From Gammaproteobacteria bacterium (lineage in GTDB: Bacteria; Pseudomonadota; Gammaproteobacteria; GCA-002705445; GCA-002716945), in NCBI GenBank assembly GCA_016779485.1, contig JADHNN010000007.1, forward strand, positions 1 to 57,163: DNA of 57,163 nucleotides, read 5' to 3'. Position 1 is the stretch's first letter. Each line of letters starts with the position of its first letter. The notes beneath the pieces are model-generated. The model saw only the letters and a list, made by a program, of their open reading frames with translations, did not search any database and was not told the DNA's origin. The translations under genes were made by a program, and so were the position numbers. Shown here in pieces: positions 21,768 to 46,703 of the stretch.

Positions 21768-21967
21768 ATAAAAAAACCACAAAAATTAGTAACTTTGAAG
21801 ATGACTTAAAAAAACTCCAGAGCATACTTGATGATATCGAATCAGATAAATTAACTCTTGAGGATTCAATACAAAAATATAAAGAAGGTATGGAGTTATC
21901 AAAGAAGTGTCAAGAAGCTCTAGATGAAGCTAAACAAGTTATAAAGTTACTTGAAGATGAAAAATAA
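21764..21967 (+). CDS. xseB: Exodeoxyribonuclease VII small subunit
   Basis: The 67-residue protein fits XseB, with FEDDLKKLQSILDDIES and LTLEDSIQKYKEGMELSKKCQEAL. It forms the complex with XseA that degrades single-stranded DNA. xseB next to dxs is the classical order, but the usual farnesyl diphosphate synthase gene ispA between them is missing. It overlaps dxs by 11 bases. Confidence 0.92.
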   Translation: MNKKTTKISNFEDDLKKLQSILDDIESDKLTLEDSIQKYKEGMELSKKCQEALDEAKQVIKLLEDEK

Positions 21968-23846
21968 ATTTTACTCCATTCTTGATAAGGTAAATTATCC
22001 TGAAGATCTTAAAAACTTAAATACAAATGAATTACACACTCTAGCCAGTGATATTAGAGAGTATATTTTAGATGTGATATCAAAAACTGGTGGGCACTTA
22101 GCCGCTGGACTAGGCACCGTTGAGCTATCAATTGCTCTTCATTATGTTTTTAATACGCCTATAGATAAAATCATTTGGGATGTGGGGCATCAGTGCTATC
22201 CACACAAAGTATTAACTGGAAGAAAAAATAAATTAAGCTCTATTCGAAAGCATGGTGGTTTGTCTGGGTTTTTAAAAATTAATGAGAGCAGATATGATGT
22301 TTTCGGTGCGGGTCACTCCAGTACATCTATAAGTGCAGCACTAGGAATCTGTATTGCTAGAGATATTAAAAATGAAAATTATAAAGTAGTTTCAGTTATA
22401 GGTGATGGGGGAATGACTGCTGGTATGTCTTATGAGGCAATGTGTCATGCAGGATATTTGAAAAAAGATATGTTAGTAATTTTAAATGATAATGAAATGT
22501 CTATCTCTCCTAATGTGGGTGCACTTAATAAATATTTGACAAGAATTCTCTCAAACAAAACCTTATCGGACATTAAAGCAAAGGGTGGAAAGTTTTTAAA
22601 TGAAAAAAATCCTTTAAAAAAGCTAGCAAGAAAGATAAAAGAAAATGCACAAAATATTCTATCCCCTGGACAGCTGTTTGAAGAATTGGGTTTTAGTTAT
22701 TATGGTCCAACAGATGGGCATGATATCCATTCATTAAAAACTGTTTTAAAGAATTTGAAGGAAAGGAAAGGACCAATACTCTTACATGTTATAACAAAAA
22801 AAGGCAAAGGCTATAAAATAGCTGAAAACAATCCTATCAAATACCATGGAGTATCACCTTTTAACATAAAGACTGGAACTGCGGATAAGCCCAAGTTAAG
22901 TAATACGCTTACATATACAAATATATTTTCTAAATGGATAAATCATAATGCTAAATATGATGACAATTTTGTTGCAATCACACCTGCTATGCGAGAAGGT
23001 TCAGGACTTGTTGAATTTGAAGAAAATTATCCAAAAAGATTTTTCGATGTAGGAATTGCGGAACAGCATGCTGTTACACTAGCAGCGGGTTTAGCAGTAG
23101 GCAAAATTAAACCGATTGTTGCAATCTATTCAACTTTCCTTCAGAGAGCATATGATCAATTAATACATGATGTAAATCTTCAGAATCTAAATGTAATGTT
23201 TGCAATTGACAGAGCAGGTTTAGTTGGAGCTGATGGTGAAACTCATCATGGAATATATGATATCTCATTTATGAGAATTCTTCCTAACATTGTTTTAATG
23301 TCACCTTCAAGCGAGAATGAGATGTGGAAAATGTTAAATACCGCTTTGTTATATAATGGGCCTGTTGCAGTAAGGTACCCTAGAGGAAATACATGTGGCA
23401 ATGAAATATTAGTAACTGATGAGGTAATTGAGATTGGCGAGTCATTGACAATTTACAAAGGCAAAAGAATAGCATTACTCGTATTTGGACATCTAATAAA
23501 TAATCTTTTTGAAATTTCGATGAAGTTGTCACTTACTCTAGTAGACATGAGATTTGTAAAACCTCTAGATACAAATAAAATAGATGTTCTAGCAAAAGAT
23601 CATGAATGTATCATAACCGTTGAGGATAATGTGGTTATTGGCGGTGCAGGTTCTTCTATAAATGAATATATTAATAAAAAGGGCTTGAAGATAAACACTA
23701 TTAATTTAGGCGTGCCTGATAAAGTGATTTCTCACGGAAGTCAAGAAGACCTATATAGACAAATAGGATTAGACAAGAAATCATTAGAAATAAAAATAAA
23801 TGAGATATACAATCAATTGACCCCAAATAAAAAAATAGTTGATTAG
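21957..23846 (+). CDS. dxs: 1-deoxy-D-xylulose-5-phosphate synthase
   Basis: Dxs makes the first intermediate of the MEP isoprenoid pathway from pyruvate and glyceraldehyde 3-phosphate, with thiamine diphosphate. I prefer the ATG at 21957 (629 residues) over a TTG two codons earlier. The protein shows GGHLAAGLGTVELSIALHYV, the cofactor motif from GDGGMTAG to ILNDNEMSIS, the transketolase part RFFDVGIAEQHAVTLAAG, and RAGLVGADGETHHGIYD. It is coupled to xseB by overlap and followed by queD after 3 bases. Confidence 0.97.
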   Translation: MKNKFYSILDKVNYPEDLKNLNTNELHTLASDIREYILDVISKTGGHLAAGLGTVELSIALHYVFNTPIDKIIWDVGHQCYPHKVLTGRKNKLSSIRKHGGLSGFLKINESRYDVFGAGHSSTSISAALGICIARDIKNENYKVVSVIGDGGMTAGMSYEAMCHAGYLKKDMLVILNDNEMSISPNVGALNKYLTRILSNKTLSDIKAKGGKFLNEKNPLKKLARKIKENAQNILSPGQLFEELGFSYYGPTDGHDIHSLKTVLKNLKERKGPILLHVITKKGKGYKIAENNPIKYHGVSPFNIKTGTADKPKLSNTLTYTNIFSKWINHNAKYDDNFVAITPAMREGSGLVEFEENYPKRFFDVGIAEQHAVTLAAGLAVGKIKPIVAIYSTFLQRAYDQLIHDVNLQNLNVMFAIDRAGLVGADGETHHGIYDISFMRILPNIVLMSPSSENEMWKMLNTALLYNGPVAVRYPRGNTCGNEILVTDEVIEIGESLTIYKGKRIALLVFGHLINNLFEISMKLSLTLVDMRFVKPLDTNKIDVLAKDHECIITVEDNVVIGGAGSSINEYINKKGLKINTINLGVPDKVISHGSQEDLYRQIGLDKKSLEIKINEIYNQLTPNKKIVD

Positions 23847-23849
23847 AAT

Positions 23850-24218
23850 ATGTTTAAATTGATAGTAAAAAAAGAATTCTCGTCTGCACATATTCTTCAT
23901 GGACACCCAGGCGATTGCAAAAGGATGCATGGACATAACTGGCTTGTTGAGGCTGAAGTAAGAGGTAGTAATATCAATGAAATTGGTATGGTAATAGATT
24001 TCAAAGATATAAAAAATAATTTACAGGGTATTATCGACAAATTAGATCATCAATACCTCAATGATATTGAGCCATTTATAAATGAAAACCCTACTGCAGA
24101 AAATATTTCCAAATATATTTATAAAGAACTATCAAAAAATATTAATACTGATAATATTAAGGTCAGTGAAATTAAACTTTGGGAAACAAGCAACTCTGCA
24201 GTAACATACACCGAGTAA
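23850..24218 (+). CDS. queD: 6-carboxytetrahydropterin synthase QueD
   Basis: QueD converts dihydroneopterin triphosphate to 6-carboxytetrahydropterin for queuosine. The 122-residue protein has all expected residues: zinc histidines H14, H27 and H29, the catalytic C23 in CKRMHGHNW, and the C-terminal Glu in [11 protein letters not shown]. The next gene is folE2, which makes its substrate. This complete active site contrasts with the degenerate homologue at 44061. Confidence 0.92.
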
Positions 24219-24222
24219 TTAT

Positions 24223-25032
24223 ATGTCAACTTCAAAATCAAAATTAGAGATAACAAACTTACCAGATACACAAGGGCAAGCAGATACAAGAAATATGCCA
24301 ATTAATAAGGTGGGTATAAAAGATATTATACACCCTATGGTAATTAAACAAAGATCTGGCAAGCAACAGTCAACAGTTGCAAATTTTAATATGTATGTAA
24401 ATTTACCTCATGATTTCAAAGGTACTCATATGTCGAGATTCGTACATATACTAAATAATCATGAAGAGCAAATTACTGTTGATTCTTTCAAGAAAATGAT
24501 TGATGAAATGTTATTACTATTAGAAGCTGAATCCGGTCATATTGAAATGAGATTTCCATACTTCATCAATAAAACAGCTCCAGTTTCAAAAGTACAGAGT
24601 CTGCTAGATTATACTGTTTCTCTAATTGGAGAAATAGAAGACGGTAAAACTAAATTGAAAGTAAAAGTCATGGTACCAGTAACAAGCTTATGCCCATGCT
24701 CAAAAAAGATATCTGACTATGGCGCTCATAATCAGAGATCTCATGTTACAATCACTGCCACTATAAAAGATTTTATTTGGATTGAAGAAATTATTGATAT
24801 TGTTGAGAGTGAAGCCTCGTCTGAACTTTATGGTTTACTAAAAAGACCTGATGAAAAGTTTGTTACTGAGAGAGCTTATGATCATCCTAAATTTGTTGAA
24901 GATATGGTGAGGGATATAGCTGTCCACTTCAATAATGATGAAAGGGTAACAGAATATGTAGTAGAGTCAGAAAATTTTGAATCAATACATAATCACTCAG
25001 CATATGCGCAGATTCATAAAATCAAAGATTAA
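24223..25032 (+). CDS. folE2: GTP cyclohydrolase IB (type IB, FolE2)
   Basis: FolE2 converts GTP to dihydroneopterin triphosphate, the entry to folate and queuosine, and can use metals other than zinc. The 269-residue protein has [20 protein letters not shown] and the catalytic-Cys region [20 protein letters not shown], which are diagnostic for the family. It lies 4 bases after queD and ends 4 bases before the convergent bamC stop. A classical folE was not seen in the window. Confidence 0.93.
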
Positions 25033-40575: not shown

Positions 40576-41352
40576 ATGCCTAAAATCAGTATAACAAAAA
40601 AAACAGCTTGGTCACTTATTTTAAAAATTAATAAAGATACTCCGCGTGTCATAAAGAATATATTAACTATTAATGAAAAGATTGATAAAAATAATATTTT
40701 TATATCCTATGATCTTAAAAAGAATTTAATTAAAGAATCAAACGTTCTTATAAATAAGTATGCAGAAAACTTATTTAAAATTTTTTTACCAATTATATCT
40801 AATCACAAAAAAAACCAATATATAGCTCATATTGCTCAATCTCTTGATGGGTACATTGCAACTCAAAGCGGAGAATCCAAATATATAAGTGGTAAGGAAA
40901 ATCTTCAACATATACATATGCTCAGAGCTATATCAGATTTTATAATAGTGGGAGCAAACACTTACATTGAGGACAAACCTAAACTTACAACAAGATTAGT
41001 TAAAGGGAATAGTCCAAAGATTTTTGTATTTGATCCTAAGGGAATTATTAAGAAAAAAGATTTGAAGTCCAATATAACTCATCTATCAGGTGATCTTAAG
41101 TTAATGACTCAATTATTGAAATCGAGAAAAAGAACGCTAGTCTATATAGAAGGTGGAGGTAAAACGATATCTTATTTTATCAAAAAGAATCTACTTGATA
41201 AGCTGCATGTATGTTTATGCCCAATCATATTAGGAGGTGGGAGACCTTCTTTTATTGAAGATAGATATATTAAGTTATCAGCTGTAAAATCTTATAAACC
41301 AGATCATTACCGCATGGGTGAGGATATATTATTTGATATAAATATTAATTAG
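40576..41352 (+). CDS. RibD C-terminal (DHFR-like) reductase domain protein
   Basis: The 258-residue protein has an unfamiliar N-terminal 80 residues, then a RibD_C domain: YIAHIAQSLDGYIATQSGES, HMLRAISDFIIVGANTYIEDKPKLTTR, YIEGGGKTISYFI and CPIILGGGRPSF. The fold uses NADPH to reduce a ribosylamino-pyrimidine or a pterin. The deaminase domain of RibD is absent, so it is not simply the riboflavin enzyme. It converges on the flippase gene with an 8-base overlap. I infer that it makes or reduces a pteridine-like precursor in the cluster at 41345-46135. Confidence 0.82.
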   Translation: MPKISITKKTAWSLILKINKDTPRVIKNILTINEKIDKNNIFISYDLKKNLIKESNVLINKYAENLFKIFLPIISNHKKNQYIAHIAQSLDGYIATQSGESKYISGKENLQHIHMLRAISDFIIVGANTYIEDKPKLTTRLVKGNSPKIFVFDPKGIIKKKDLKSNITHLSGDLKLMTQLLKSRKRTLVYIEGGGKTISYFIKKNLLDKLHVCLCPIILGGGRPSFIEDRYIKLSAVKSYKPDHYRMGEDILFDININ

Positions 41353-42214
41353 ATTTCTTATTAATTAGAAAATACAGTCCAGGGACAGAACATATTAAAT
41401 TAGTCAAACCATAGACAATAGCTACTGTAACACTTGCAGATACTGATAATCCAAGAAGAAATGAAACAGCTAAAGCTGCTGTTTCCCTTACTCCCCATCC
41501 ACCAATACTAACAGGCAAAGTCATAGAAAATAAAACTAGCGGGGCAAAAACAAAGAAGCTTACAATATCAATATTTAGTTCTAATGCCAGAGCACAAATA
41601 ATATATGTAGTTATATAGGTGATAACAATTATTAATGATAAAAAGAAATGTTTATAAAATAGTTTACCGCTAAAAATATACTTAAAGTTATTTATATACT
41701 TGCTTTTTAAATTAAATTTAAAAAATAGGTTTATTAATAATATTAATATTATGATTAAAGTTAGAGTATAGAAAAATGCTTCATATTTTTTATTAATAAA
41801 AAAAAGAAATGCCAAGGATAGAATAAAAGTAACTAATAATGAGACTTGTCCTGATAGGCGCTCAAAGATAACTGATTGAAATGATTTTAAGAAGTCTCCT
41901 TTTTCATCGTTTACTTTTATATTCATCGTTCGATAAATATCTCCAAGAATCCCTGTGGGAAGTATGTTATTTAAAAAACCTGAAATGTAATAAAACTTGA
42001 TTGCGTCTAGATAATCAATTTTAGATTTTGTATTTGAAGCTATAAAGTGCCACCTCCATGCAGAGAGTAAGTATTGAAAAATACTAAGAAGAATAACTAG
42101 AGGTAAATAAATTAAGTTGATATTTTTTATTATTAGCTGAATTTCACTGCCATAGCTAAATAATACATATGACATTAAAAATATAGATATAATGTATTTG
42201 GTCAGCCTCTTCAC
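41345..42214 (-). CDS. LPG synthase-type transmembrane protein (flippase-like)
   Basis: The 289-residue protein has seven to eight membrane helices of the lysylphosphatidylglycerol synthetase TM family, with LLSAWRWHFIASNTK, LPTGILGDIYR and PVSIGGWGVRETAA. It lacks the soluble aminoacyl-transferase domain, so it is of the stand-alone kind associated with lipid flipping or glycolipid loci. It is the last gene of the five-gene leftward operon and overlaps the methyltransferase gene by 4 bases. It could move a lipid-linked product across the inner membrane; this is inferred. Confidence 0.78.
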   Translation of the reverse strand: MKRLTKYIISIFLMSYVLFSYGSEIQLIIKNINLIYLPLVILLSIFQYLLSAWRWHFIASNTKSKIDYLDAIKFYYISGFLNNILPTGILGDIYRTMNIKVNDEKGDFLKSFQSVIFERLSGQVSLLVTFILSLAFLFFINKKYEAFFYTLTLIIILILLINLFFKFNLKSKYINNFKYIFSGKLFYKHFFLSLIIVITYITTYIICALALELNIDIVSFFVFAPLVLFSMTLPVSIGGWGVRETAALAVSFLLGLSVSASVTVAIVYGLTNLICSVPGLYFLINKKSN

Positions 42215-43083
42215 TTTTGTTGTATCAAAATATCATTATGTCCAACATATAAACTGATTTTTTTATTTTCTATCTCATACTTTTTTTGTTCATGCCATAA
42301 CTTCAATATGTTTCTATCTATTCCTTCCATATGAAACAGAGATTTCTTAGTATCTAAGATATATCTTTTCATGAATATTTTATCTTTCTCTGAAAGATTT
42401 TTAATTACCCAAGGCGCGTTTTTAATTGTAACTGTGAGATCTGCTTTGTTTGCTTTGTTTGAAATGTATTCTATTGATTTAGAGCCTAATGCTAATCCAA
42501 ACCCCTTATCTGATCTTTGATGATTATTAAAAAATGATAAGATATATTTATCCATTGTATTAGAGGGAGTCCACTTAACTTTACCATTGAAACAAAGAGA
42601 TAAATATAAGGGGCAATCACTTTGTACTTTCTTTAATAGATTATTAATTGTTGATTTTGACATAAGATCTAAAACTGCTGAAAAACTTATTAAGTGATAC
42701 TTATCATTGTTATGTTTATATTTATTACAATCATTTTTTTTTATTTCTACTTTTGATACTGTATCTTCATTTTTTTTAATTATTAGATCAAGATTGTTCG
42801 TATTAGATCTAATTTTATGTGATGGCTTTATAACAGACCTGATATTTTTTTTTATCTTTTTGAGAAGTTTAGTGTCATAATCGACCAGTACATATTTTTT
42901 ATAATTAATATTATTTTTAATCAACCAGGCTAAAAAACTTCCAGATCCGCAATATAAATCTAGAAGATTGATTTTCTGAGTTTTAGAAACTGTACTTAGG
43001 TATTCAATTAACAGACCACTGCGAGCTTGCATATCATATGCTTGTCTCATTTCTATCCACGATGGGCTAAATTTATTATCCAT
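42211..43083 (-). CDS. Class I SAM-dependent methyltransferase
   Basis: The ATG at 43083 (290 residues, MDNKFSPSWIEMRQAYDMQARS) is preferred. An upstream start at 43176 would lie inside the glycosyltransferase gene. AdoMet-binding motif I is NLLDLYCGSGSFLAWLI, followed by the acidic VLVDYD of motif II. The C-terminal half contains GFGLALGSKSIEYIS. The methyl acceptor is unknown. It overlaps the GT4 gene by 8 bases, so it is coupled to it within the operon. Confidence 0.8.
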   Translation of the reverse strand: MDNKFSPSWIEMRQAYDMQARSGLLIEYLSTVSKTQKINLLDLYCGSGSFLAWLIKNNINYKKYVLVDYDTKLLKKIKKNIRSVIKPSHKIRSNTNNLDLIIKKNEDTVSKVEIKKNDCNKYKHNNDKYHLISFSAVLDLMSKSTINNLLKKVQSDCPLYLSLCFNGKVKWTPSNTMDKYILSFFNNHQRSDKGFGLALGSKSIEYISNKANKADLTVTIKNAPWVIKNLSEKDKIFMKRYILDTKKSLFHMEGIDRNILKLWHEQKKYEIENKKISLYVGHNDILIQQK

Positions 43084-44059
43084 ATAATACCTTCTTAAAA
43101 GAATGACCAACATCTTTCCATGTCTTGAATTTAGTTCTTTTTTTTGTATAAGAGGATTCAGTAATAGCAGAAACAATAGATTTTATATTATTCAGGTTTA
43201 CATATTTCCTATTCAAACCAACTAAGTTTTCTCTAAAAACAGGTATGTCAGAAACAACTAGCGGTAAACCCAAAGCTGAACTTTCAATATTTGCCATACC
43301 ATATCCCTCATACCTACTAAGGCACAGATACACATTAGCTTTTTTAAGATAATCAATTAAAATATTTATATCTTGAATACATTCAATAAACTTAATCCTG
43401 CTATTGAGTCCATACTTATCTATCAGAGAAGTGAGATATAAAAAATAAGAACTTTTTTGATCATTTTTACCTATAATCGTAAGAGTCCATTTATCATCCA
43501 TATACTTTAATGCTTCAATAGAAGTTTCTAGATTTTTTCTAGGAATGACCGATCCAGTAGTAATGATATTATATTTTTGTTGTGTTGGAATACTCTCATC
43601 ATTATTATAAAAAATATTATCAACACCTGGACTAATAACCTTTATATCTATATTTTTATTTAATATTTTCTTTATTACCCGTTTCATAGTTTTACTAACC
43701 GTAATGATTTTGCTAGCAGCGGAGAATATTTGCTTCTCTTTCAATTTAATAAAAATATCTCCATATTGATTATTTTCATACGATACTGGATGATGGATAA
43801 GTAAAATTACTTTAAATTTCTTGGATAATATTTTTGACAGATGATTAATGTGAGATGCAATCAAACCGTCTATTATTATGGTGGACTTATTGGGTATTAT
43901 ATTTAGATTAAAGAATATTTTCTCTAATCTCATTCTAGTTTGTGTTACAGGAATATTTATAAGTTTACATCTATGTGAGTTGAGGTACTGAAGGACTTTT
44001 AAATCATATTTGTTACCGCCAGAAATGGTTGTAAGATCAGGAGTAATAAAATAATTCAC
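43076..44059 (-). CDS. Family 4 glycosyltransferase of the pteridine-like cluster
   Basis: The 327-residue GT-B protein starts MNYFITPDLTTISGGNKYD. It has ISPGVDNIFY and ITTGSVIPRKNLETSIEAL for the donor domain and the signature RYEGYGMANIESSALGLPLVVSD. It starts 1 base after the PTPS-like gene ends and overlaps the methyltransferase gene. It probably glycosylates the product of the preceding enzymes. It is unlike the lipopolysaccharide GT4 at 8316. Confidence 0.83.
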   Translation of the reverse strand: MNYFITPDLTTISGGNKYDLKVLQYLNSHRCKLINIPVTQTRMRLEKIFFNLNIIPNKSTIIIDGLIASHINHLSKILSKKFKVILLIHHPVSYENNQYGDIFIKLKEKQIFSAASKIITVSKTMKRVIKKILNKNIDIKVISPGVDNIFYNNDESIPTQQKYNIITTGSVIPRKNLETSIEALKYMDDKWTLTIIGKNDQKSSYFLYLTSLIDKYGLNSRIKFIECIQDINILIDYLKKANVYLCLSRYEGYGMANIESSALGLPLVVSDIPVFRENLVGLNRKYVNLNNIKSIVSAITESSYTKKRTKFKTWKDVGHSFKKVLYG

Positions 44060-44060
44060 T

Positions 44061-44453
44061 TTAAATTTTTTTTAAAAATGAAGCTGATGCTAAATGATTT
44101 TCTTTTAAATTAATTTTTATAGAATGAATTTTATGTAATGGATAATCAATTTTATCTAACTCTGCATAGATATCATCCGCAAATTGTTTAGCCATATATT
44201 CTGTAGTAGTAATCTCACCATTAAATTTATCTAAATCATCTAGATTCTTATAATTATATTGCTCGATAACTTGTTTGAGAATTTTAGTAATAAGTCCAAT
44301 ATCGATAATCACATTTTTTTCAATAAGCGTAAATGATGAAATAGTAAGTTCAATAACATAGGTGACTCCATGAAGATTTTTTGCAGGACCAAAAAATTCA
44401 TCATTTAAACTATGCGCAATAAAACAATAATCTTTGATTTTTAATTCATACAT
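44061..44453 (-). CDS. PTPS/QueD-like protein with altered active site
   Basis: The 130-residue protein has the tunnelling fold of 6-pyruvoyltetrahydropterin synthases, with an N-terminal FIAHSLNDEFFGPAKNLHGVTYVIEL. The first zinc His (AHS) and the first His of the HGH motif remain, but the second is Val (HGV) and the catalytic Cys four residues earlier is Ala. The later segment EITTTEYMAKQFADDIY replaces the usual PTAEN-type element. A true QueD exists at 23850, so this is a paralogue with different chemistry. I recall the same GPAxxLHGxTY variant in alphaproteobacterial clusters; this was not checked. Confidence 0.85.
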   Translation of the reverse strand: MYELKIKDYCFIAHSLNDEFFGPAKNLHGVTYVIELTISSFTLIEKNVIIDIGLITKILKQVIEQYNYKNLDDLDKFNGEITTTEYMAKQFADDIYAELDKIDYPLHKIHSIKINLKENHLASASFLKKI

Positions 44454-45422
44454 TTAATATTTCACAACTTTACATAAGCCTTTTGGATTTCCTTTTTTAA
44501 AAAATACAGGAAGATCACTTAAGGACAATTCATTATTATCAATTAGAATATCTAACTTATCATCCTTTAACATTTTTAATGCTAAAAGTCTTCTATCAAG
44601 ATTATTCCATTTTTTTGATTTATAAGATGTGATATTGCCAACTTGAGAAAATATTAACTCCAGTCTTCTAGAAAAACAATTTTCTCCCATTTTAATCTTG
44701 GCTTGCTGTTTACCATACCAACTCAAAATACAAATCTTCGTCTCAAGAGGTGAATTGTTAATTATCTCGTCTAGAACATCGACAGAACCTGAACATTCAT
44801 AGACGATATCTGGATCTTTGATATGATCTAGGTTTTTTTTATAAGTAATACCAAATGCACTACAAAGCTTCTTCTTTTTAGTATCTCTATCGATTACAGT
44901 TACATCTATACCGAAAGTATTTTTTAATACATAAGCCATTAAAAGCCCAACTATGCCTGCTCCTATCACAAAAGTTTTATCACCTATCGAAGGTTTTGAA
45001 TCCCACATTGCGTTAATAGCAGTTTCCATATTAGCTGTAAGTAATGCTCTCTTAATTGGTATTTCATTAGGTATGAGCGTTATCAAAGATGAACTAATTT
45101 TATAAATAGATTGATGCGGAAACATAGTGTAGACATTTTTATCAATAAGTTTTTTTGGCCCCTCAATAATCTTTCCTACACTTAAGTAACCATATTTGAC
45201 AGAACCATTAAATTCACCAACTTGATGCGGTGCTTTCATAAAATTATATTGATTCCTGGGTACTTGTGAATCAAAAACTATTTTTTCAGTACCATAACTT
45301 ACTCCTGAATATATAGCTTGAACTACGACATCATTATCTGCAAGTTCGGAATCAATTATCTCTTTTCTTATTGTCCCTTTTTTATTAGATACCCAAAATG
45401 ATTGTGATGTATACTGTTTCAT
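44454..45422 (-). CDS. Zinc-type medium-chain dehydrogenase/reductase
   Basis: The 322-residue protein has an N-terminal GroES-like part with SGVSYGTEKIVF and a Rossmann domain with FVIGAGIVGLLMAYVL and TVIDRD. The catalytic zinc Cys-His arrangement of alcohol dehydrogenases is not obvious. It is the first gene of the leftward operon and directly abuts the PTPS-like gene. A TATAAT lies 6 bases before its ATG, inside the opposite gene. It probably oxidises or reduces a sugar or pteridine side chain; the substrate is unknown. Confidence 0.82.
   Translation of the reverse strand: MKQYTSQSFWVSNKKGTIRKEIIDSELADNDVVVQAIYSGVSYGTEKIVFDSQVPRNQYNFMKAPHQVGEFNGSVKYGYLSVGKIIEGPKKLIDKNVYTMFPHQSIYKISSSLITLIPNEIPIKRALLTANMETAINAMWDSKPSIGDKTFVIGAGIVGLLMAYVLKNTFGIDVTVIDRDTKKKKLCSAFGITYKKNLDHIKDPDIVYECSGSVDVLDEIINNSPLETKICILSWYGKQQAKIKMGENCFSRRLELIFSQVGNITSYKSKKWNNLDRRLLALKMLKDDKLDILIDNNELSLSDLPVFFKKGNPKGLCKVVKY
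45410..45415 (+). promoter_or_regulatory. -10 element of the CDP-alcohol transferase gene (leaderless)
   Basis: TATACT ends 9 bases before the ATG at 45425 and lies within the first codons of the opposite dehydrogenase gene. The divergent start codons are only 2 bases apart. Confidence 0.4.
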
Positions 45423-45424
45423 GG

Positions 45425-46135
45425 ATGAATTATAGCAAATTTACATTATCTACGTATACATACATTCAGCTAATTATAATTAATTTAGCATTGTTACTTA
45501 TTTTGATAATTTCTTTGACAAAAGAAGATCTATTATTATCTATAATTTATAAATCAGTAGTAATATATTCAATTATATTTAGTTTATTTATTTTCTTTTT
45601 TAGAAAAATGAATATTTTTATAAATATACCAAATTTAACTACCAACTATAGGTTGATTATTAATAGTTTCATTTTAGTGATTGTGGTTAATTTAGTGCAC
45701 TATGATCTTAATTTACTTCTAACGCTTTGCTTGATCAGTTTATTTCTTGATGGTATGGATGGATTGATATCAAGATATTTAAATCAAAGTACAAAGTTTG
45801 GTGAAATTTTTGACCAAGAAGTTGATAATCTTTTGATACTGATTCTCAGCTTCTCGCTAGTGTATAATTATAATTATAACTTATTAATCTTGATTATACC
45901 TTTTTATAGATACATATTCTTAATTTTGATGAGATATAATTATATAGGTAAGCAAAAGCTTCTAGAATCTTTTTTTCGAAAAATGACATGCGTTTTAGTT
46001 ATAATTGCTCTATTGCTTTGTAATTATTTTTATACTAATAATTTAATTATAAATTTATATTATATAAGTATACTATTGATTACATACTCTTTTTCTAGAG
46101 ATATGGTCTGGTTATATAGGAGGAAAAATGTTTAA
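45425..46135 (+). CDS. CDP-alcohol phosphatidyltransferase
   Basis: The ATG at 45425 (236 residues) is 2 bases from the divergent start; an ATG at 45398 would overlap the other gene. The protein has about six membrane helices. The full catalytic signature lies at about residues 110-135: two Asp in DGMDG, then S-R, Gly eight residues later, and Asp-x3-Asp (FGEIFDQEVD). Family enzymes transfer a phospho-alkyl group from a CDP-activated lipid to an alcohol. Next to a glycosyltransferase and a flippase-like protein this suggests a lipid-anchored product. It overlaps yceI by 8 bases. Confidence 0.82.
   Translation: MNYSKFTLSTYTYIQLIIINLALLLILIISLTKEDLLLSIIYKSVVIYSIIFSLFIFFFRKMNIFINIPNLTTNYRLIINSFILVIVVNLVHYDLNLLLTLCLISLFLDGMDGLISRYLNQSTKFGEIFDQEVDNLLILILSFSLVYNYNYNLLILIIPFYRYIFLILMRYNYIGKQKLLESFFRKMTCVLVIIALLLCNYFYTNNLIINLYYISILLITYSFSRDMVWLYRRKNV
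45429..45434 (-). promoter_or_regulatory. -10 element of the dehydrogenase-PTPS operon (leaderless)
   Basis: TATAAT on the minus strand lies 6 bases before the ATG at 45422 and inside the first codons of the divergent CDP-alcohol transferase gene. Together with the opposing TATACT it forms interlocked promoters. Confidence 0.5.
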
Positions 46136-46703
46136 AAAAATTATCATATTATTATTGATACCGATAATTGTATTTGGATCAGAGGATAAATATGTTATCG
46201 ATAAAACGCACTTTTCTGTTGGATTTCTTGTTGAACATGTAGGATACGCGAAAACGCTTGGTATGTTTAGAGAAATAGATGGTAGTTATACCCATGACTT
46301 AGAAAATAATAAAATCAATGATATAAAAATTGTTATCAATACAAACAGTGTATTTACAAATCATGACAAAAGAGATAAACATCTGATAAGCCCTGATTTT
46401 TTAGATGTTGAAAAACATCCAGAGATGATATTTGTGGCAAATAATATCAATATTAATAAAAATGAAACGCTGATAAATGGCTCATTGACTTTATTAGGTG
46501 TGACTAAACCTCTGACGCTCAAAGGAAAAATTAATAAAATTGGAAAATATCCTTTTGGCGGTCTTATAAAGCCCTACGTCATGGGTATCTCAGCTAGAGG
46601 GATTATAAAAAGATCAGATTATGGAATGATGTATGCCCTTAAAGATAATCTTGTAGGTGATGATATAGAATTAATTATTGAGTTTGAAGCAAGAAGACAA
46701 TAA
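46128..46703 (+). CDS. YceI-family periplasmic protein
   Basis: The 191-residue protein has a signal peptide (residues 1 to about 17, ending VFGS). A lipocalin-like YceI barrel follows, with YVIDKTHFSVGFLVEHVGYA, GSLTLLGVTKPLTLKG and GISARGIIKRSDYGM. Relatives bind polyprenoids or other amphiphilic molecules. It overlaps the CDP-alcohol transferase gene by 8 bases and the next gene by 1 base, so a lipid-like ligand related to the cluster is conceivable. Confidence 0.9.
   Translation: MFKKIIILLLIPIIVFGSEDKYVIDKTHFSVGFLVEHVGYAKTLGMFREIDGSYTHDLENNKINDIKIVINTNSVFTNHDKRDKHLISPDFLDVEKHPEMIFVANNININKNETLINGSLTLLGVTKPLTLKGKINKIGKYPFGGLIKPYVMGISARGIIKRSDYGMMYALKDNLVGDDIELIIEFEARRQ

What the first reader, a model, noticed from the sequence alone, without database searches (positions are those of the whole stretch)
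44061..44453. PTPS-like protein lacking the catalytic Cys and one zinc His, beside an intact QueD elsewhere
The canonical C-x3-HGH motif is A-x3-HGV. The intact QueD at 23850 has C23, H27 and H29, so queuosine synthesis does not need this copy. A preserved fold with altered active site inside a tight operon points to a new reaction or a binding role, not decay.
Basis: seen in the sequence. Interest (0 to 1): 0.7.

Follow-up and report, generated by a model that had tools for sequence, protein, structure and literature searches.

The report
PTPS-IV protein in unknown pterin-like pathway
The odd pterin-synthase-like gene is not a decaying copy but one more member of a known bacterial subfamily (PTPS-IV) that always lacks the usual catalytic cysteine and one zinc ligand, and it sits in a widely conserved gene cluster that probably turns a GTP-derived ring compound into a still unidentified sugar- or lipid-linked product.

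Summary
In detail: the minus-strand gene at 44061-44453 encodes a PTPS-fold protein with A24-x3-H28-G29-V30 where QueD (23850) has C-x3-HGH. The catalytic Asp-His pair is also gone (N67, Y68). This is fixed, not decay. In 124 homologue rows Ala24, His14, His28, Asn70, Asp72, Thr84, Glu85 and Glu118 are invariant, and position 30 is never His. dN/dS is 0.08-0.18.

The protein belongs to a published subfamily, PTPS-IV (signature FGPAQ; here FGPAK). Its solved representative is SCO6650 (PDB 3d7j; model TM-score 0.94).

What is less documented is the gene cluster. It holds a BchC-like dehydrogenase, PTPS-IV, a GT4 glycosyltransferase and a methyltransferase, usually with a RibD_C reductase, a CDP-alcohol phosphatidyltransferase and a flippase-like protein, and often GTP cyclohydrolase II and a creatininase-family hydrolase. 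It recurs in Pseudomonadota, Actinomycetota, Bacteroidota and others. In 398 genomes, PTPS-IV and the dehydrogenase occur in exactly the same 27, side by side.

Best reading: PTPS-IV binds, and probably transforms without zinc or cysteine, a 2-amino-4-oxo pyrimidine or pterin made from GTP, which is then glycosylated, methylated and perhaps lipid-linked. The reaction and product are unknown. A published link to F420 does not fit: 19 of 20 cluster-bearing genomes lack CofH.

The parts
44061..44453 (-). PTPS-IV protein (130 aa): H14, A24, H28, V30, N67/Y68 in place of the catalytic D/H, T82/T84/E85, E118
44454..45422 (-). BchC-like MDR-fold dehydrogenase (322 aa); the usual zinc-ligand Cys region reads SGVSYGTE; PTPS-IV's constant partner
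43076..44059 (-). GT4-family glycosyltransferase (327 aa)
42211..43083 (-). SAM-dependent methyltransferase (290 aa from the ATG at 43083; the longest ORF starts at a TTG at 43176); fused to GT4 in Marinobacter/Halomonas
41345..42214 (-). LPG_synthase_TM / flippase-like membrane protein (289 aa)
40576..41352 (+). RibD_C reductase paralogue without deaminase domain (258 aa); nearest solved proteins are 2,5-diamino-6-ribosylamino-4(3H)-pyrimidinone 5'-phosphate reductases
45398..46135 (+). CDP-alcohol phosphatidyltransferase (245 aa; start more likely 45425) with intact DxxDG...G...D...D motif
46128..46703 (+). YceI-like protein, a frequent neighbour in gammaproteobacterial clusters; membership in the pathway uncertain
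23850..24218 (+). Canonical QueD (C23, H27, H29), the comparison copy; not part of the cluster

Best explanation
The protein is a PTPS-IV subfamily member. Shown here: the fold, the fixed loss of the PTPS/QueD catalytic Cys, third zinc His and Asp-His pair, the retention of the Glu and Thr-x-Thr-Glu positions that anchor the 2-amino-4-oxo ring in PTPS/QueD, and an obligate partnership with a BchC-like dehydrogenase inside a conserved biosynthetic cluster. Inferred: the cluster diverts a GTP-derived ring. GTP cyclohydrolase II (cluster-borne, or housekeeping RibBA in the window's genome) gives 2,5-diamino-6-ribosylamino-4(3H)-pyrimidinone 5'-phosphate; where needed the creatininase-family hydrolase removes a formyl group; the RibD_C paralogue reduces the ribosyl chain or a pterin ring without deaminating C2. 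PTPS-IV then holds this ring by Glu118 and, with the dehydrogenase, reshapes its side chain or closes the ring without zinc or cysteine. GT4 and the methyltransferase glycosylate and methylate the product; the CDP-alcohol transferase and flippase-like protein may link it to a lipid or move it across the membrane. The exact reaction and product are unknown.
For: PTPS fold: AF2 pLDDT 95.6, TM 0.94 to 3d7j. Invariant A24, H14, H28, N70, D72, T84, E85, E118 in 124 rows. Purifying selection. PTPS-IV group apart from QueD, support 100/99. Cluster in 58 loci with flanks: dehydrogenase 57, GT4 55, methyltransferase 53, RibD_C 43, CDP-OH 40, LPG_TM 34, GCHII 33, creatininase 24. PTPS-IV and dehydrogenase in exactly the same 27 of 398 genomes, adjacent. 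RibD_C paralogue closest to non-deaminating DARPP reductases. Nine actinobacterial cluster GCHIIs have Met/His/Leu at the E. coli Tyr105 position, eight of them with a creatininase homologue nearby; creatininase-family BrbF deformylates the same kind of intermediate in S. meliloti (PMC9478397). Published PTPS-IV neighbourhood of PF00925 and PF01872 agrees (PMC5445326).
Against: Two sister genomes of the window's genus (G006, G008) lack RibBA, RibD and RibH yet keep the cluster, so a GCHII product may not be the obligate input; both keep FolE2. The window's family has neither cluster-borne GCHII nor any creatininase. Alphaproteobacterial and Bacteroidota clusters mostly lack the flippase and often the CDP-OH gene, so lipid linkage is not a core feature. 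No ligand, metal or activity was observed; pocket roles are transferred from PTPS/QueD.
Confidence: 0.6

Rival explanations
1. PTPS-IV is a non-catalytic binder: a pterin or pyrimidine chaperone, scaffold or sensor that hands an unstable intermediate to the dehydrogenase.
For: All known PTPS catalytic groups and one zinc ligand are missing while ring-anchoring residues are invariant; constant adjacency to one enzyme.
Against: Many further invariant residues (H14, H28, T31, N70, D72) are more than an anchor needs, and metal-free T-fold enzymes exist (dihydroneopterin aldolase, seen as a remote fold match).
Confidence: 0.27
2. Decaying QueD/PTPS duplicate kept by hitch-hiking in the operon.
For: Loss of catalytic residues; an intact QueD is present in the same genome.
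Against: Same substitutions across several phyla, dN/dS 0.08-0.18, open frames in all orthologues, group separate from QueD, 27 of 27 co-occurrence.
Confidence: 0.02
3. PTPS-IV acts in coenzyme F420 synthesis, as mentioned as unpublished in PMC5041015.
For: Statement in PMC5041015; F420 uses a riboflavin-pathway intermediate (established knowledge), and GCHII/RibD_C are neighbours.
Against: CofH C-terminal domain absent in 19 of 20 PTPS-IV genomes searched; no FbiC-type gene was recognised in the clusters.
Confidence: 0.04

Closest known systems
PTPS-IV subfamily of COG0720 (signature FGPAQ; PMC5445326, Phillips et al. 2012 cited there)
   Same: Signature (FGPAK here, FGPAQ in most), neighbourhood with GTP cyclohydrolase II and RibD_C families
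   Different: Window copy has Lys for Gln in the signature and its cluster lacks GCHII; the fuller cluster (dehydrogenase, GT4, methyltransferase, CDP-OH, flippase, creatininase) was not described in the text I could read
SCO6650 of Streptomyces coelicolor (PDB 3d7j)
   Same: Best sequence hit (2.9e-22) and best fold hit (TM 0.94), same Ala and missing third His; from memory, reported to lack zinc and PTPS activity while keeping pterin-binding residues
   Different: 34% identity; actinobacterial clusters carry GCHII of the SCO6655 kind and creatininase and usually no RibD_C
QueD / PTPS-I (6-carboxytetrahydropterin synthase)
   Same: T-fold, first two His positions, PTxE-like motif, C-terminal Glu
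   Different: No catalytic Cys, third zinc His or Asp-His pair; below the QueD equivalog cut-off; separate group in the tree
Archaeal/fungal-type early riboflavin route (GCHIII, ArfB/BrbF deformylase, ArfC/RIB7 reductase)
   Same: Neighbouring genes match each step by family
   Different: Followed here by dehydrogenase, PTPS-IV, GT4 and methyltransferase, not lumazine synthase

Membership tests
PTPS-IV subfamily | FGPAQ-type signature instead of CxxxHGH | tested here: met
   FGPAK in the window; F21, G22, A24 invariant in 124 rows, P23 in 117, position 25 Gln 105 / Lys 15; definition
PTPS-IV subfamily | Neighbourhood with PF00925 and PF01872 | tested here: met
   RibD_C in the window and in 43 of 58 loci; GCHII in 33 of 58, but not in the window's own cluster
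PTPS-IV subfamily | Groups with SCO6650 by sequence and fold | tested here: met
   Profile E 9.2e-60 to 3d7j; TM 0.94
QueD / PTPS-I | CxxxHGH with catalytic Cys and three zinc His | tested here: not met
   A24, H28, V30
QueD / PTPS-I | NCBIfam QueD equivalog cut-off 89.25 bits | tested here: not met
   45.8 bits
PTPS fold (T-fold) superfamily | PTPS Pfam model and T-fold | tested here: met
   67.1 bits against cut-off 22.4
F420 biosynthesis | Genome encodes CofH/FbiC | tested here: not met
   Absent in the window genome and in 19 of 20 PTPS-IV genomes
PTPS-IV subfamily | No zinc bound and no PTPS activity (reported for SCO6650, from memory) | not testable with these tools
   Needs purified protein

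The most novel reading that the evidence does not exclude
The cluster makes an undescribed, widely distributed pterin- or pyrimidine-containing glycoconjugate, possibly lipid-anchored, in which PTPS-IV performs a metal-free, cysteine-free T-fold reaction on a GTP cyclohydrolase-derived ring.
Probability: 0.35. Interest if true: 0.75.

Novelty: new member of a known kind. Interest (0 to 1): 0.45.

Why it matters
PTPS-IV has had a name and a crystal structure for years without a described reaction in the sources I could read. The conserved cluster gives a concrete list of partner enzymes and a likely substrate class, so substrate screening becomes a small, defined experiment. Its retention in ~1 Mb genomes argues that the product matters to the cell. 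The case also warns against the routine annotation '6-carboxytetrahydropterin synthase' for such genes.

Tried and rejected
Decay of a QueD duplicate: rejected. F420 role: contradicted by absence of CofH. A dedicated GCHII/creatininase supply in the window organism: not found. Strict pairing of non-Tyr GCHII with creatininase: only partial, since many Tyr-type clusters also carry creatininase. Literature searches for SCO6650, SCO6655 or the full cluster found nothing on them in the held library; Phillips 2012 is not held, and the DOI I tried for the SCO6650 structure paper was not found. My first ORF clustering included antisense ORFs in GC-rich loci and was redone.

Full report
What is there. 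The gene lies on the minus strand at 44061-44453 and encodes 130 residues. It matches Pfam PTPS at 1.8e-18 and misses the QueD equivalog cut-off by a wide margin. Its motif is A24-x3-H28-G29-V30. Compared with the window's QueD, the pair that supplies the catalytic Asp and His (L-D-H-Q) is replaced by Y-N67-Y68-K. The first histidine (H14), the TTxTE region (T82-E85, corresponding to the PTxE of QueD) and the C-terminal Glu (E118) are kept. That these positions anchor the pterin ring in PTPS/QueD is established knowledge of the family, not measured here.

Is it fixed? A protein search of 57 relatives found 18 orthologues at 97-276 bits, all in the window's own family, against 29 bits or less for QueD-type hits. 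In 398 genomes of the phylum the gap was equally clean: 27 orthologues, window included, at 69 bits or more, and QueD-type hits at 39 bits or less. That scan used a pattern with HG[AV]T and so is biased against HGH; searches are not. In 124 aligned rows (a few duplicated between sources) A24, H14, H28, G29, T31, D51, N70, L71, D72, T84, E85, E118 and A122 are invariant, and position 30 is never His. Between congeners dN/dS is 0.08-0.18 (some dS values near saturation). A tree places the PTPS-IV rows on one side of a branch with support 100/99, QueD on the other (long branches, rooting arbitrary).

A profile of the neighbouring dehydrogenase, independent of PTPS sequence, was run over the same 398 genomes. 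It found strong matches (E below 4e-82) in exactly the 27 genomes that carry PTPS-IV, each next to it. No dehydrogenase orthologue stood beside a Cys-type PTPS.

Structure. AlphaFold2 gave mean pLDDT 95.6, and the best solved match is SCO6650 (3d7j, TM 0.94, rmsd 1.4), ahead of E. coli QueD (TM about 0.73). From memory, the SCO6650 structure paper reported no zinc, no catalytic triad and no PTPS activity, with pterin-binding residues kept; I could not read it.

Known subfamily. PMC5445326 describes PTPS-IV by the signature FGPAQ and a neighbourhood of PF00925 and PF01872, 561 sequences. Its text calls PF00925 a GTP cyclohydrolase I/FolE2; the Pfam family is GTP cyclohydrolase II. PMC5041015 says PTPS-IV is involved in F420 synthesis, as unpublished. 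The F420 gene domain CofH_C is absent from 19 of 20 PTPS-IV genomes.

The cluster. In 58 loci with enough flanking DNA the gene families found were: dehydrogenase 57, GT4 55, methyltransferase 53, RibD_C 43, CDP-OH 40, LPG_TM 34, GCHII 33, creatininase 24, YceI 18. GT4 and methyltransferase are fused in Marinobacter, Halomonas and Cryobacterium. Conserved columns in these families include the usual active-site motifs, for example the CDP-OH aspartates and GCHII cysteines. The dehydrogenase is BchC-like and lacks conserved Cys ligands in the aligned set. The RibD_C paralogue's closest solved relatives are reductases that act before deamination, so its product would keep the 2-amino group that Glu118 could recognise; this link is inference.

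Supply of substrate. In nine actinobacterial clusters the GCHII residue aligned with E. coli Tyr105 is Met, His or Leu, and eight of the nine have a creatininase homologue nearby (the E. coli RibA sequence used for numbering was written from memory). From memory, the Tyr-to-Met change in SCO6655 makes the enzyme stop at the formylated product; a creatininase-family protein, BrbF, deformylates such a product (PMC9478397). Proteobacterial clusters keep Tyr and usually RibD_C. The window's genome has one RibBA, a normal RibD and RibH on another contig and no creatininase. Two sister genomes lack the riboflavin operon altogether yet keep the cluster, which weakens a strict GCHII origin there; both keep FolE2, so a dihydroneopterin route is an alternative.

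Verdict. The protein is a new member of a known, functionally undefined subfamily. The most useful addition is the broad, consistent cluster and the predicted substrate class. Whether PTPS-IV catalyses or only binds is open; I lean to catalysis.

Noticed in passing
G006 and G008 (same genus as the window), compared with G000:C10:4130-6968: Both genomes (92% and 96% complete) lack RibD, RibBA and RibH, which form one locus in the window's genome, while keeping the PTPS-IV cluster with its RibD_C paralogue: possible lineage-wide riboflavin auxotrophy.
   Followed up: partly
L123:14745-15476, L119:14619-15350, L073:9274-10014, L084:7259-7924 and five further actinobacterial loci: Cluster-borne GTP cyclohydrolase II with Met, His or Leu at the position of E. 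coli Tyr105; His and Leu variants may also be formyl-retaining enzymes.
   Followed up: partly
window 45398-45425: The dehydrogenase and CDP-alcohol transferase genes are divergent with starts overlapping by 25 nt or at most 2 nt apart, leaving no room for an ordinary intergenic promoter.
   Followed up: no
window 21951-25032: dxs, queD and folE2 lie in tandem; folE2 is directly downstream of queD.
   Followed up: partly
L056, L060, L070, L080, L126, L128: GT4 and methyltransferase fused in one 627-665 aa protein, suggesting consecutive or complexed action.
   Followed up: partly
L063 (10001-10393), L066 (3941-4333): Records labelled Pelagibacterales and marine Alphaproteobacteria carry the cluster, and their PTPS-IV groups with the window's family and Bacteroidota rather than other Alphaproteobacteria (97/96), hinting at horizontal transfer.
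   Followed up: no
G012:C1:66553-66825: A CofH_C match in a 798-aa frame in one member of the window's family, the only F420-type hit; may be a stray contig.
   Followed up: no
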